Positions 17,101 through 58,961 of a stretch of DNA of 64,000 bases are shown one piece after another. The notes beneath the pieces were generated by a model. The model made no database searches. It was not told the DNA's origin and saw only the letters and a list, made by a program, of their open reading frames with translations. Made by a program: the position numbers and the translations under genes. Position 1 is the first letter of the stretch, and each line of letters opens with the position of its first letter. The DNA lies in contig NC_057863.1 of NCBI RefSeq assembly GCF_019393635.1, forward strand, positions 622,909,791-622,973,790. The letters run 5' to 3'. This DNA comes from Dromiciops gliroides. Its lineage: Eukaryota > Chordata > Mammalia > Microbiotheria > Microbiotheriidae.

Positions 17101-19279
17101 AGTTGAAATGTTTTTTTGTGTGTGTTTATAAACTAAGTTAGACTTCCTCCTGTCAATAACCCCTCCAGGCCATGGTCCTAGGAATAGGGTCTCTCAATCA
17201 CAGAAGATGAAGTTTTATAACTTTTGTTTCTTACCACTTTCCTTCCTCTAAAGAACAGAACAATTCACAGTTCCATCAGCTAACAGTATATTTTGTTTCT
17301 CCATAGGCCCAGCAAAATGGAATTTTACCATTTTTAGTTCTTTGCCAACTTAAGGGGAAAAAGATGGTCATTCAAAATTGTCTTAATTTTAATTTCTCTG
17401 ATTATAAGCAAAGTTTGAACAATTTTTTAGCTTGCTGAATTTCCTTTTTTAAGAGCTGCCTATCATATTATTTGTCCACTTATCTATTGGCAAGGGATGT
17501 TATTCTTATAAATTTCTGTCAATTCCTCCTTGGTTCTAAATGTCAGATTTTCATCAGACATATTTAAGGAAAACATTTTCCCAATCTTTTTCTTTCCCTT
17601 TTATTCTGGAAGCATTGTTTTTTGTTGGGCATAGATTTCATTACTTTGTTTCCTGTAACTTCTCCTATTTATTCAATATTCTCTTCTCCACAACTAGTAC
17701 AGATAAAATCATTTCACCTTATAATTTATTTACTTTTTTGATGTGTCTAAAAGAGTCACCATTTTAAACTAAGGATACATCAAGTCTGAACAATCACGGC
17801 TGGGAAATTTTTGGTGTTGCTACACAAACCTAAGAATACACTGGGCTATCAAAGTTTCTGTGCTGTCTTTGTAATTATGCTTTCTTTCTTTCTTTCTTTC
17901 TTTTTTTTGCAGGGCAATGAGGGTTAAGTGACTTGCCCAGGGTCACACAGCTAGTAAATGTCAAGTGTCTAAGGTCAGATTTGAACTCAGGTCCTTCTGA
18001 CTCCAGGGCTAGTGCTTTATCCACTGAGTCACCTAGCTATCCCCTAATTAAGCTTTTTTTTTTTAAACAACTTATTTTCCTATTCCATTTTCAGGATGTT
18101 CTAAACCCACAAGTCTTTCCCATATGCCCAGATGTTACTCCATCCTCAACCCTTTGATCTGAGGAATTTTCTACTCAAAAACTTTGGGATAAGATAGAAA
18201 CATCAGCTCACTTATCCATTTCCACTTCTGTCTCCCACTCAAGAAGCGGCACCCCTCGCAGTCCTATATGTATGTCGTAAATGCCTTTGTTGAAGAAGTC
18301 CCCAGTCCACTTGGCCACCTGCAACACAAAACAAGGACTAGAGAGAATCCAGGCAGAAAGTAAACTAACCCCTTAACTAGGAAGAGGAGAGGAGGTATTT
18401 ACCATCAAGGTGATCATAATGGGAAGCCCGTAAGTGATCTCATTGGTGGACTCTATCAGGATGACTGTAAGGCTGATGGTCATTCGGACTACACCACCCA
18501 AGAAAGCTGCAGCACCAATCAAGGCAAAGGTCCCTGAATAGATGTGGCCCAGTCCAATGTAGCTGGTTAGGAATGAGGTCAGACACATGAATTAGGACTG
18601 TGTGGTTGCTGGGGCAGGGAGCAGGGGAAGATATACATTCTATTCTCTAACACATCCATGCACATGCACGTGCATGCACGTGCACACAGAGCACCTTTTC
18701 AGAACGTTGGCCACTAAGCGTCCAAAAGCAGCTCCACAGAGCAGGGAGGGCACGAAGAGGCCACTTGGAACCGACATGCCATAGGTCCAACAGGAGAGTG
18801 AGAAGTAGAGAATAAAGAACAAGGCCAGCGTGATGGGGCTGAAAGTGCCTGTAAGACAAAAGAGCAAGCGCTGCCTCCTCTCGGTATCTCAAGGACCTTA
18901 TTCTGGGCAGTTCACAAGTCGTGCCTCTCCCATGGAGCAGCCCAGCTTGGTACAGGCTCTTCAGCCTGGGGTGGGGGTGAATGATGGGCTGGCCCTGGAC
19001 ACTCACCATCCTGGTGAAAGAGCTGCAGGATGGCAGATTCTTGGGGATTGAAGAATAGTGTCGCCATATCATTGTAGGTCTCATTGGGGCAAAAGAAAGT
19101 TTTGATGCTCGAGTTCACGTCTTCTGAAGTAACCTGATGTGGTAAAAACCGGAAGTTTTAGCTGGATCATGTGAGAGTTGAGCGCATGCTACTGAAGCGG
19201 CTTTTGAAGGACCTCCCTTTTGGGGAGGAGTCTGCAACGAACTTCCAGCAGCCAGCTTAAAACTGAGGGAGGAACGGAA

Positions 19280-19322
<43 letters not shown>

Positions 19323-22300
19323 CTTTTCAGCTTAGCCATGGCGGTGCACACGTTTGGTGTTCGGCTCTGGTTCTCCGCCTGGCGGGCAGTTTGGGATTTG
19401 GTGAGTTTTATAAAGGAATATAGACTAAGCTTAGATCTAACTAAGATTATTCATTTATATTTCTACTTTCCTATTTCCCTAACTGGTATCACCTTTTGTG
19501 ATTTAATTAATTCCCAAGCAATAAAAACTAATCCCCCAGGGGCAGCTAGATGGCGCAGTGGTTAAAGCACTGGCCCTGGATTCAGGAGGACCTGAGTTCA
19601 AATCCGGCCTCAGACACTTGATACTTACTAGCTGTGTGACCCTGGGCAAGTCACTTAACCCCCATTGCCTGCAAAAAAACAAACAAAAACTAATCCCTCA
19701 CTGATTAAAGCTCAGAGGCTTTTTTTTCTTAGTGGTCTGGGAGATATATAAGGGAAAAGTTAAAAGAGGGAGTTTAATGCTCATATATCCAATTTTAAAT
19801 CTCACACTGATGATGGGGAACCAAAAAGATGTTGGATGGCCAAGTGGCAGAGGCACACCCTGGGAGCTCTCACTACATAAGAGGTGGGCTGCAAAACGTA
19901 GAGCCAGGTGCTCAAAAGCAAGCAATCCCAACACTGAAGTCAAAGCTGTCTTCCTTATGGAGCTGGGAAAGATGAGCAATAAAAAGAACCCAGGCTCTCT
20001 GTACCCATATGCTCCCAGGGCGTGCACTGGCTCAAACATCCCGTTGTTTTGGTGGGTTCATCTTTCGGTGGCCCACAACCAACCCTATGTATTAAGGTAT
20101 TAAGGAGTGACAGAAGGCTGTATGGGAAAGAGGAGGGGGCTCAGATCTGTAGGGGAAGGGGCTGGGGCACATTTTGACCCAAAGGAGCTACTTTAGGTCC
20201 AGGGAAGAAGCTTCTGCCCCACTGCTACTAAGAAATACCAGGGGGGCAGCTAGATGGCGCAGTGGTTAAAGCGCTGGCCCTGGATTCAGAAGGACCTGAG
20301 TTCAAATCCGGCCTCAGACACTTGACACTTACTAGCTGTGTGACCCTAGGCAAGTCACTTAACCCCCATTGCCCCGCGCAAAAAAAAAAAAGAAATACCA
20401 GGGGTCCAAACTGTCCTGCCCATGCTCCCATCTTCTACTTACAGCTTTTGAAAATCCAACTTGGTGGTTCCTGGTGCCTTCACGTTGCTCTTTTTAATCA
20501 GCACCCTAGCACCCTTTCTCTCCTCACTGGGATTCGTTCTCTGCCTTCAAGCTCCCTTTCTCTCTCCCTCCTTTCCTCTCTCTTGACTTTCCTGAGTTGA
20601 CTTCCTCCCTACAGAACTTTAACCAATGGGAACTTACCTGTCGTTCCCTGGGACAGGGGAAAAAGTCTGAAATCTGCTCTCTCTCCAGCGTATGTTCCCT
20701 TTCCCTTCACTATCACAAGCTCTCACCTACCCCTAGAGTTCCCATTATTTCCACCCCAACAATCAGTTCCTCCCTGAATAGTGTTCTGATGCATTCCAGC
20801 TGCTTACTGGGGGGGAATCACAGAGCTACACTGAAGAGACTGACAGAAAAAGGGTCCTGGAGGTCTTATGTGACCTTCCAGTCACTTCCAAGGGCTAGCA
20901 GGGTAGAGAGGGAGGGAGTAGGAAGCAGATTCATGAAGGTGGGGCTAGGACTCCACCATTTTCCATAAAGAGTGGCATCACCATATACCTACTGGCCAAA
21001 GACTTGATTGTTAAACCAGGCTGACAGAGGATTAAGAACAAAACGTGAGGGAATCTACCTCCTCAGGGATGAGTCCTAGACATCATGGGGCATATCAAGG
21101 ACACCACGGAGATGCGATTAGGCTGAACCACGATGAGAGAGATAAACCCATTACATGCAGAATTGGGCATTCGTCTTTCAGAGTGGGAGGGAGAACACCT
21201 CTGAGATACAAACATCAAAAGCTCTGGGGCCCTTGACTGGAAAGCTCAATAGGCTAAGCTGGGCCTCAAGGGAGAAGCAGAAGAAAGCCCCTCACCTGGG
21301 TGGGTGCTGCTGTAGGCTTGTCTGGGATACAAAGGGGCCTGCACCATTTAGTTCTCTTCCATCTCGGGTATCCAACCCAATTCACAAGGAAAAAAAAAGC
21401 AGATGAGGATTCTGGGCATGCACTCTCTAATAAGGGTTACAACTGGCTGAGGCTTCCTGCAAGGCTCTCTACCTAAGCCTGAGAGCTCGTCTTAGTTCTA
21501 GGCAAAGGCATGGGAGACACTTGCGAATTCTGCCCCTAAGGACATATGGGGAGCTTGTGGCGAGGGACAGCATGTACCTGTGGCTGGAACGAGTCATTCC
21601 CACTCTGACTAGCAGAGGAGATCTGCCGGCACTCTCCCAAAATCATGGAAGCAACAAATACCACCACCGTGGTCATCAGGGACACCAACAGGCTTTCCAA
21701 GACTCTGTGACAAAACACAAATCAGATCCTGGTTTAAAACAGACCTCTTAAAAAAGTCCTGTCTCAGAAAATCCTTCTCTAGTAAAACTCCCCCACCCCC
21801 TCCCCTCCATTTCCAACAGCCCCAGTTCTGGCACCTGCTTCCTGTGCTCAGACCGTGGGGAAGGGCAGTGGGCAGCAGTTCATCAGCCACACACACTAAC
21901 GGAGACTGATGCCCAGATCTTAGGAATGCAGGGCTAGGCCTTTACACCCCAAGGTGGGAGAGCCCTGCAGAACCCAAATGACATGCTGACCTCTCCTAAG
22001 CTCCCATGTCACGAGTCCAGAGATATAGTTACTGAAAGATCAGATCCTCTGATGTAAGTCAAGCTGCCAACTTGGGCTTTGTTCTGTTGTCTGACACCCC
22101 AGGATGGCTGGTCCTGTGGCTGAGGCTGTTCAGACTGGACTTTACATCTGGGGCATGCAGCCCCCAACTGGGGGCACCAAGGACACGTTCCCAGGAGCCC
22201 CCATCCCTCTCCACGTTTGGCTCCACTCTCTCCTATGAAGTTAAACGAGCTGCACCAGTCAGGGAGGAGAAGGCAGCAGCACAGATACCTGACAAGCTTA

Positions 22301-25300
22301 GGTTTCGGGTGCACGTTTCGCATACGGTACTTTGCAAGCCTCTTGTTCAGACAGTTGAATGTGGCTCCAAGGAGGCCCCCAATGACCCCCATCACGATGA
22401 AGAAACCCAAATCCACAGCTGTCCAGAGGTGACATTTTTTATCAGAGTCAGAGCACTGAGAGAAGAAGGGAGAGAGAGGGAGGGAGAGAAAACCAGCGTG
22501 CAGTGAGCACAAAGGAGAACAGAACAGAGGAAGACAGCCAAGAGCAGAGGCAAGCACACACCCTTCTAAGAGAGCCAACAAGCTGTGAGGAAGCTATGGC
22601 CCACACCAGACAGACACCCACCACCCCAGGAGCTTCTGGCAGCCCCCCCAGAGGGGCCCGCCTTCGGCTCACCTTGCTTCCCCTCCCCGAGTGAGAGGGA
22701 CACAGCCACCACCAGCCTGGGCCCCCACCCCCACCCCGGGACCTTCTGCTGAGCCAGTGTATGCTGCCATCTGACAGTACCACACCACCACCACACCACC
22801 ACTGCCTCCTCTTGCCTGTGGAGGGCCTCTCTCTCCTGGACCACTCCTCATGCCCAATAATCACAGGTGCCCCTCAGGGCACCACCTGGGCCATCTTCTC
22901 TTCTCTCTCTAGCCTACTTCACCTGCCCCTCTCATGAGCTCCCATCGCGATGCTGATGATTCTCAGCTCTCTGCTGACCTCCAGCCTCGGATCTCCCATC
23001 TCCACCTTCCTACTGGACACATCTAGAAGTCGAGGTCCCCCACATCTTCCCAAACCTCCCCTCTCCTCATTTACTTGTGACTGTGGAGGGCACCGCCATT
23101 GGGCTCCTAGCCTGGGGTCATCCTTGATTCCTCCCTCCCTCTCACTCCCCATATCCACTTTCTTGTCCAGGACTGTCAATTCCACCTTTGTAACATCTTT
23201 CCCATAGGCCCCGTCTCTTTGGATGTTGCCACTATTCTGGTAAAATCTTCATCTGCTCACAGGGGGCCTATGAACAGTTGTTCTGTCCTCCTCTGGGCTT
23301 CCCTGCCTTCCTTCCCCTTCCCCCTTCCCCAAGAAGCCTTTTCTCACCCGCCTTCATTCTAGTGTCTCCTCCCTATTGATCATTTACAATTTTTCTTGTA
23401 TGCAGTTTGTTGCACACAGTTGTTTGCAGGGGTCTCCCCCACTGGGCTAGGAGCTGCTTGAGGGCAGGGCCTGGCTGCCCCCTTTCTTTGTATTTCTAGC
23501 ACTTAGTACAGTGCCGGGCATACAGCCCTGGCCTGCCTGGGGGAGGGGGACCACTTCTTGCTCCCCAAGGCTGCATCCAGACTCCCCACCTCTACCACAA
23601 TCGCTGAGTAACGTCTCCTCCGAAATTCCTTCAATCAAAAACCATCACCCAATGTAGATGCTGGCAATCATCCCCTACCGACCCTCAGGGCAGCCTTCTC
23701 CTCCTCCCTAAATGACTCTAGTGCCTAACTTGGACCACCCACCAGCTCCCCACTTCCCCTTTCTCTTATTTCATCCCGGTCTCTGAGGACTCTACCCTTC
23801 CTACTCCCTTACACCTCCTGACTTGGTTCTTCCTTTTTAGCTGTGACCATGAATCCTTCCGTGCTTCCCTTCTTCCCAGGCCACACACTCTTCCTTCTCG
23901 ATTTCAATCCACTGACGAAACAGTGAAAACTCTACGCTACTGCCTGTCTGAACCTCTTACTGCTTTGTCTTATTGCTGATTGAGCCTTGCCAACCCCCAG
24001 CCCCAGACTCCTCCAACTGTCAGCATCTTTTGTTCCTATTCAAAGGTGCTGCTGAACAGAGCCTGGGACATCATGAAAACTAAGCTGATTAGGTCCACTA
24101 GGAATTTCCATTCAGCTCAAATTGGCCCTCCCTGTGGCAAGGCTATCCGTCTACTTCTCGCTAAGATCTCTATCCCACTCTCTCCTCTTCCACACTCCGG
24201 TGCCTCCCCCCCCCTAAGCTAAGGACTCGCCAAAGAACCGGGCCATTGGCCAAGGGCTCTTTCCTTCCATCTTCCCTGGTGAAGAGGTGGGACTTTATGT
24301 GCCATGGCCAAGCCTTCTATGCACACCCTCGGTCTTCCTCCTCCCATCTACACTAGGTGCCTTCACGAGCTTCTAAACCTCTGCAAGAGGGCATCTGATC
24401 TCATCCTTCCATCGAACCTGCCCTCTCCTGAGTTACCAATGACCTCCTGACTGCCTTTTCCCAGCCTTCATGGCCTGGAATCTCTGCACGGCTTGCCTCT
24501 GTTCACGGCCGTTTCCACTTAGAGGCCCCTTTCCTCTCTCTGCTTTCATCACCCCACTCTCCCGGCTCTCCTCCTCCCTGTCTGACCCCTCCTTTTCAGT
24601 TTCCTTTGCTGAGTCCTCATCAACGCCACTCCCACTACCTGCGCGTGCTCCCCAAGGCTCTGTGCTGGACTCTCTTCTCTCCGCCATCTCACTCCGTGAT
24701 CTCATCATCTCCCAAGGGGTCAATTACAATCTCTAGGTGGATGACTTCTAGGGTACCACATCTGGCCCAAGTCTCTCCCCTCAGTGCCAGTCCCACGTGA
24801 CCAGGCGCCAAGGGGACATCATGGAGGTGTCTCAAACTCAACATGTCCAAAACAGAACTCGTTACTTTCCCCCTAAACTCTCTGCTCCTCTGGATTCCCC
24901 TAGTGAGTCCCAGTCACCCAGGCCGACAATCCCAATGTCATTTGGGATTCCATGGTCTCACTCCCCCGCACACTCATTCAGTCACCAAGTCTTGTCTTTT
25001 TTGCCCTCAGAGTCTCTGGTGTACGGCCCTCATCACCTCTCACCTGAACTACTGACAAGTCTTCTACTTCATTTCCTTGCCTCCAGTCTGTCTTCCCTCC
25101 AATCCAGCTGACAAAGCATAGGTCTGACCACGTTACCCCCCTCCTCAATCAACTCCTGTGGCTGCCGATGACCTGCGGTACCAACTACAAAGTCCTTTGT
25201 TTAGCATATAAAGCTCTTTGCCGCTGGCTCCTTCCTACTGTCCAGTCTTCTGACATTCACTCCCTTCCAGACTCTACAATCGTATCCTAAAGACCTACTT

Positions 25301-48432: not shown

Positions 48433-58961
<10,529 letters not shown>

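What the first reader, a model, noticed from the sequence alone, without database searches (positions are those of the whole stretch)
19134..19810. Solo LTR inserted exactly at the splice acceptor of CLCN6 exon 14
Seen: CLCN6 coding exon 14 ends (minus strand start) at 19133. The next four bases, ctga, read tcag on the gene strand, the final intron bases. At 19138 a TGTG...CACA element begins, and it is followed at 19807 by a second ctga. So the 4-bp target duplication is the acceptor's own tcag. The proximal acceptor now takes its pyrimidine tract (ggtttttaccaca) and a branch-like ctaaa from the LTR. Beyond the LTR, the distal tcag still has a strong host tract (tctttttggttccccatca), which must be the original. 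Use of the distal site would add LTR sequence to the mRNA and should truncate the protein soon; skipping the 127-nt exon would shift the frame. Inference: either the LTR has become a working splice acceptor, or this allele lowers ClC-6. Human loss or gain of CLCN6 function is linked to neurological storage disease, so a tolerated insertion would be notable.
Basis: partly seen in the sequence, partly recalled or inferred. Interest (0 to 1): 0.87.

Follow-up and report, generated by a model that had tools for sequence, protein, structure and literature searches.

The report
Retroviral LTR replaces a splice acceptor
In this genome an old retroviral repeat landed exactly on the end of an intron of the ion-transporter gene CLCN6, duplicated the four letters at which the splicing machinery cuts, and very probably now supplies the neighbouring signals that keep the gene working.

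Summary
On the minus strand CLCN6 coding exon 14 (19133..19007) follows a 669-nt element (19138-19806, TGTG...CACA) flanked by ctga/ctga, which is tcag on the gene strand: the 4-bp target duplication is the acceptor's own last four intron bases. Copies in the same genome show it is an LTR: of 38 fetched, 33 show both ends, 14 of 33 with an exact 4-bp duplication and 12 of 33 with a shared polypurine tract. It is antisense to CLCN6.

Best reading: the exon-side tcag is the working acceptor, with branch site and pyrimidine tract now from the LTR. A small weight matrix gives it 4.98, the pre-insertion site 4.29, the stranded distal site 2.23. Eight other acceptor-like sites tested, and skipping of exon 14, all truncate ClC-6; yet the 870-codon frame is intact, with 11 differences to koala over 726 residues, although the LTR carries 7 private changes in 453 sites. 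No RNA or sister-species DNA was available, so use of the site is inferred. A clean new case of a known kind; the dog merle insertion is the closest precedent.

The parts
19007..19133 (-). CLCN6 coding exon 14, 127 nt, starts in phase 0
19134..19137 (-). exon-side tcag: proximal acceptor and one copy of the 4-bp target duplication
   Evidence: acceptor score 4.98
19138..19806 (+). solo LTR (TGTG...CACA), sense strand +, antisense to CLCN6, with a nested SINE
   Evidence: family copies with the same ends, 4-bp duplications and a polypurine tract; TATAAA 19409 and AATAAA 19520 on +
19138..19152 (-). pyrimidine tract of the proximal acceptor (ccggtttttaccaca), supplied by the LTR U3 end
19156..19174 (-). 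branch-like motifs in the LTR: A at 19158 (CTAAA, -25), 19167 (ATGAT, -34), 19172 (CTCAC, -39); the next AG upstream leaves 28 nt to the exon
   Evidence: motif consensus recalled
19283..19320 (-). GA run in the LTR (38 nt), full of AG dinucleotides
19539..19681 (+). SINE nested in the LTR; repeats of its insertion site at 19520-19538 and 19682-19700
19669..19688 (-). acceptor-like site made by the SINE tail (poly-T then gcag; would start an exon at 19668)
   Evidence: score 10.4; stop after 5 codons
19807..19810 (-). distal tcag: second copy of the duplication, now the stranded end of the original acceptor
   Evidence: score 2.23
19811..19829 (-). host pyrimidine tract of the original acceptor (tctttttggttccccatca)
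   Evidence: joined pre-insertion site scores 4.29
21578..21704 (-). CLCN6 coding exon 13, whose donor opens the intron

Best explanation
A retrovirus integrated antisense to CLCN6 with its 4-bp staggered cut exactly on the last four bases of intron 13, and was later reduced to a solo LTR. The duplication left a tcag on the exon, so the exon border and frame survived (shown). The LTR's U3 end, read backwards, now supplies branch site and pyrimidine tract, and the spliceosome mainly uses this rebuilt acceptor (inferred). The original branch region and tract sit about 670 nt upstream and leave with the intron (inferred). A SINE later entered the LTR.
For: Flush duplication and LTR identity. Exon-side site scores 4.98, at or above the pre-insertion site (4.29) and above the distal site (2.23); 10 of 27 real acceptors reach 4.98 in leave-one-out. 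Only 10.1% of 28,873 intronic 16-mers would do as well before TCAG|GTT; the LTR's other end would give -0.68. 30 of 33 family copies have an end scoring at least 4.98. Branch-like motifs lie in the LTR, while the distal site has no T-N-A motif between -63 and -6. The distal site would make an 800-nt exon against 127 nt. Eight other acceptor-like sites tested, and exon skipping, all truncate, yet the frame is open for 870 codons with 11 differences to koala over 726 residues, where 23.9 missense changes would be expected if ClC-6 had drifted for the LTR's 1.55% private divergence.
Against: No RNA evidence. Seven AGs of the 237 scored between 21557 and 19008 outscore the site, among them the SINE tail (10.4) and two host AGs (10.6, 10.0); 43 of 2814 AGs not used as acceptors in CLCN6 score as high. 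The matrix is small (27 sites). The tract of this copy is weaker than in most of its relatives (G at 19149, T in 23 of 27 copies). With a lower divergence of 0.62% the conservation argument on all 11 differences vanishes (P 0.75), though the 2 changes placed on the window lineage stay few (P 0.004). Mice without ClC-6 live and breed (PMC7940362, passages), so survival alone proves nothing.
Confidence: 0.82

Rival explanations
1. Leaky version: the exon-side acceptor works, but the distal or SINE-tail acceptors take a share of transcripts, which carry early stops and are decayed, so ClC-6 dose is lowered, somewhat as in dog merle. Not fully exclusive of the main reading, which only claims that the exon-side site dominates.
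For: The distal tract is untouched; the SINE-tail site scores 10.4 and is second of 237 AGs. Stops follow 3 and 5 codons later. Merle shows such competition (PMC7349775, section 3.1).
Against: The SINE-tail site has AGs 21, 28 and 32 nt upstream, so its best-looking branch motif (TTAAT, -37) meets three AGs first. The distal site scores lower than the exon-side site and would need an 800-nt exon.
Confidence: 0.12
2. Damaged allele: the insertion breaks exon 14 splicing and this species or individual lacks most ClC-6.
For: The insertion displaces the original branch site and tract by about 670 nt. Clcn6 knock-out mice are fertile with a normal life span (PMC7940362, passages), so loss is survivable.
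Against: All 23 coding exons are open with GT/AG borders; 11 differences to koala over 726 residues, 2 placed on the window lineage, 3 on koala, 6 unclear; LTR private divergence 7 of 453 and a nested SINE speak against a fresh mutation.
Confidence: 0.04
3. Assembly error or misjoin.
For: Reads could not be checked.
Against: Exact 4-bp duplication, exact family ends, and a 670,775,900-base contig around it; a misjoin would not make a target duplication.
Confidence: 0.02

Closest known systems
Dog merle SINE at the PMEL intron 10 / exon 11 acceptor (PMC7349775, section 3.1 read)
   Same: Retroelement inserted antisense into an acceptor; its target duplication keeps the original acceptor on the exon; element sequence acts as pyrimidine tract; cryptic acceptor in the element competes.
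   Different: Merle is a SINE with a 15-bp duplication and poly(T), and it alters coat colour. Here it is an LTR with a 4-bp duplication that is exactly the terminal tcag, with branch-like motifs in the element, and the gene looks conserved.
Exon extension by splice sites inside human LTRs (PMC2008291, passages)
   Same: LTRs supply splice signals; 586 of 1395 LTR-exon associations there were exon extensions through a splice site inside the element.
   Different: Here no LTR base need enter the mRNA: the LTR feeds a host AG at the original exon border.
Introners (PMC9860276, passages)
   Different: Introners make new introns inside exons; this element lengthens an existing intron.

Membership tests
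Solo LTR of an endogenous retrovirus | TG...CA ends shared by dispersed copies | tested here: met
   33 of 38 fetched copies show both ends; end placement of L015 and L023 is extrapolated
Solo LTR of an endogenous retrovirus | short fixed-length target duplication | tested here: met
   4 bp here; exact 4 bp in 14 of 33 copies
Solo LTR of an endogenous retrovirus | proviral copies with a polypurine tract before the 3' LTR | tested here: met
   12 of 33 copies are preceded on the sense strand by variants of one A/G tract
Solo LTR of an endogenous retrovirus | primer-binding site after a 5' LTR, and viral genes | tested here: inconclusive
   The 30 bases after the LTR showed no shared sequence in the 33 copies; viral genes were not searched
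Class I (ERV1-like) element | 4-bp duplication (recalled as typical) and pol phylogeny | tested here: inconclusive
   4-bp duplication met; no pol examined
Merle-like acceptor insertion | element inserted in the acceptor, duplication keeps the exon-side AG | tested here: met
Merle-like acceptor insertion | shift to a cryptic acceptor shown in RNA | not testable with these tools
   no RNA data held
Introner | creates a new intron in an exon | tested here: not met
   a host acceptor tract lies beyond the element and exon 13/14 join in frame

The most novel reading that the evidence does not exclude
The LTR took over the whole 3' splice-site apparatus (branch site and tract) of a conserved coding exon, and the site was then tuned: a C at 19171, where 27 of 27 compared copies have A, completes the branch-like motif CTCAC. 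The stranded distal and SINE-tail acceptors stay as a dose-setting, decay-coupled alternative.
Probability: 0.15. Interest if true: 0.6.

Novelty: new member of a known kind. Interest (0 to 1): 0.42.

Why it matters
It is a natural experiment: one integration displaced the original branch site and tract of a coding exon and put retroviral sequence in their place, apparently without loss of the gene. It shows how a flush duplication of the acceptor AG can make a harmful-looking insertion tolerable, and why direction may matter (4.98 for this LTR end against -0.68 for the other). It also gives a testable locus for competition between a rebuilt near acceptor and the stranded original one.

Tried and rejected
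Rfam scan of the window at gathering thresholds: 0 matches. A second copy of the LTR in the window: apart from the SINE part, only simple-repeat and short weak matches recur. Was the extra Ser beside the junction (VTSEDVN; human has VTEDVN) caused by the insertion? Rejected: VTSEDVN also stands in bat, camel, pig and koala sequences. Do private changes cluster in the last 40 nt? 2 of 7, P 0.12, not significant. Did the nested SINE come with the LTR? Four other copies (L029, L030, L032, L033) carry a SINE at the same LTR site, but theirs are 86-89% identical to this one, while the window copy at 20244 is 97% identical; a separate later insertion is more likely. A hunt for a spliced retrocopy of CLCN6 in the same genome did not complete, nor a copy count with the LTR part free of the SINE. 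Papers: ten counted searches; (CLCN6 + marsupial) gave one paper, which leaves marsupials out (passages); no title or abstract start listed described this insertion.

Rows dropped: one search scored all 33 copies with both ends (5 of 38 fetched lacked one). Base counts over the last 40 positions used 27 of 33, without L015, L021, L023, L034, L038 and L042 (indels or unclear ends). Distances used 29 sequences: the window copy and 28 of 33, without the 5 copies of 540 nt or more (L018, L029, L030, L032, L033). The weight matrix used 20 of 22 CLCN6 acceptors (without the U12-like intron 5 and exon 14) and 7 MTHFR acceptors. The stop test took 8 of the 24 other sites listed. The koala comparison was cut at residue 825, where that isoform's end differs.

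Full report
Observation. CLCN6 lies on the minus strand. A human ClC-6 protein typed from recall marked its exons, and 23 coding exons with GT/AG borders join to an open frame of 870 codons. Exon 14 spans 19133..19007, is 127 nt long and begins in phase 0; its peptide matches human ClC-6 in PDB entry 8jpj with E 3.2e-22. Just upstream on the gene strand lie tcag (19137..19134), a 669-nt element with TGTG...CACA ends, and a second tcag (19810..19807) preceded by a host pyrimidine tract.

What the element is. The window's own genome (3,303,199,800 bases, 17 contigs) holds many copies: 4009 candidates in the first look, of which 40 were scored. I fetched 38 copies. In 33 both ends could be placed (two of these by extrapolation); 14 of 33 have an exact 4-bp duplication, and 12 of 33 have a C/T-rich flank beside the end that faces exon 14 here. 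On the sense strand those 12 flanks are variants of one A/G-rich tract just before the LTR, the mark of proviral 3' LTRs (recalled). So the element is an LTR whose sense strand is the window's + strand, antisense to CLCN6. TATAAA at 19409 and AATAAA at 19520 on + agree. With its own 4-bp duplication and no such tract at its edge, this copy is a solo LTR. No shared sequence appears after the LTR in the 33 copies, so no primer-binding site was seen. A SINE sits inside the LTR between imperfect 19-nt repeats; 17 other long copies of it lie in the window, the one at 20244 97% identical over 130 nt.

Chance. For one given acceptor a flush hit is very unlikely. Genome-wide it is not: with 77,446 ERV loci as given for the Tasmanian devil genome (PMC11334065, passages) and about 190,000 acceptors (recalled), roughly 5 flush insertions would be expected before selection. 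What needs explaining is survival, not occurrence.

Splice signals. A weight matrix from 27 acceptors of CLCN6 and MTHFR in the window gives 4.98 for the exon-side site, 4.29 for the joined pre-insertion site and 2.23 for the distal site as it is now; in leave-one-out 10 of 27 real acceptors reach 4.98. Against this, the exon-side site ranks only 8th of 237 AGs scored between 21557 and 19008 (20117: 10.6; SINE tail at 19668: 10.4; 20146: 10.0), and 43 of 2814 AGs of CLCN6 that are not its acceptors score as high. Of 28,873 intronic 16-mers set before TCAG|GTT, 10.1% do as well as this LTR end; the other end of the LTR would give -0.68. Among the family copies 30 of 33 score at least 4.98, so an acceptor-like U3 end is a family trait. 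This copy is weaker than most because of a G at 19149, where 23 of 27 copies have T. Branch-like motifs lie at -25, -34 and -39, and the nearest upstream AG leaves 28 nt to the exon. The distal site has no T-N-A motif between -63 and -6. The SINE-tail site has a good motif (TTAAT, -37), but AGs follow it after 5, 9 and 16 nt.

Consequences. The distal site adds 673 nt and brings a stop after three codons; the SINE-tail site brings one after five. All eight alternative sites tested truncate (417-432 codons), and skipping exon 14 stops the frame at codon position 460. Of the options tested only the exon-side site preserves ClC-6.

Age against conservation. Without the SINE and the GA run, this copy differs from its relatives by at least 5.5% and 7.7% in the median; the relatives differ among themselves by 7.5% in the median; 7 of 453 sites are private to this copy (29 sequences). 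At 2-3e-9 changes per site per year (recalled) that is very roughly 5-18 million years, and some change may predate insertion. Had ClC-6 drifted that long, 23.9 missense changes would be expected over 726 compared residues at the private rate; window and koala (P0060) differ at 11 in all, both lineages together (P 0.0027), with 2 placed on the window lineage, 3 on koala and 6 unclear. With a divergence of 0.62%, a low value set by me, 11 is unremarkable (P 0.75) while 2 is still low (P 0.004). The gene looks constrained through the life of the insertion, so a usable acceptor should exist. Loss of ClC-6 in mice is mild (PMC7940362, passages), so conservation, not viability, carries the argument.

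Mechanism and limits. Shown: the anatomy, the LTR identity and orientation, and the frame consequences. Inferred: that the exon-side AG is the one mainly used, that branch site and tract come from the LTR, and that the insertion is fixed. A C at 19171 (A in 27 of 27 compared copies) completes a CTCAC motif, which would be a tuned branch site if used; but two of seven private changes in the last 40 nt is no excess (P 0.12), so this stays speculation. A mixed pattern with some decay-bound transcripts remains possible.

Known kind. The nearest precedent is dog merle: an antisense SINE in the PMEL acceptor whose duplication keeps the old acceptor and whose poly(T) acts as the tract (PMC7349775, section 3.1 read). 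Introners take a splice site from the duplicated target (PMC9860276, passages) but make new introns, and human LTRs often extend exons through internal splice sites (PMC2008291, passages). The present case brings these features together in an LTR and appears tolerated: a new member of a known kind. None of my ten paper searches listed a report of this insertion, but the library holds only open-licence papers.

Noticed in passing
window 34390 to 32618 (minus strand): CLCN6 intron 5 looks U12-type: donor GTATCCTTTT and TTCCTTGAC with its A 12-13 nt before the exon (motif consensus recalled).
   Followed up: no
window 22455..21578 (exons 12 and 13): Koala isoform P0060 and five other listed isoforms (P0048, P0052, P0059, P0062, P0112) run straight from exon 11 into exon 14; exons 12+13 are 294 nt, in frame, so the exon 14 acceptor also serves a skipping isoform elsewhere.
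   Followed up: partly
L029, L030, L032, L033: Four other copies of this LTR carry a SINE at the same site beside the AATAAA signal, in the same direction: a recurrent SINE target or a SINE-bearing subfamily. The query held the SINE, so such copies were favoured.
   Followed up: partly
window 20117 and 20146 (minus strand): Two strong acceptor-like AGs in tandem in intron 13 (scores 10.6 and 10.0), in host sequence; used, they would truncate ClC-6.
   Followed up: no
L014, L015, L019, L020, L026, L032, L034, L036, L038-L040, L042: 12 of 33 copies have the polypurine tract of a 3' LTR but none of the 33 shows a shared sequence after the LTR, so no 5' LTR was recognised among the scored copies; only 40 of 4009 candidates were scored.
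   Followed up: no
G000 contigs C1-C7: Contigs seen of about 764, 702, 671, 497, 303, 281 and 85 Mb would fit a 2n=14 marsupial such as a dasyurid (recalled karyotype); ClC-6 is close to koala. Species not established.
   Followed up: no
window 48502-58955 (+ strand): MTHFR lies head to head with CLCN6, as recalled for human.
   Followed up: no
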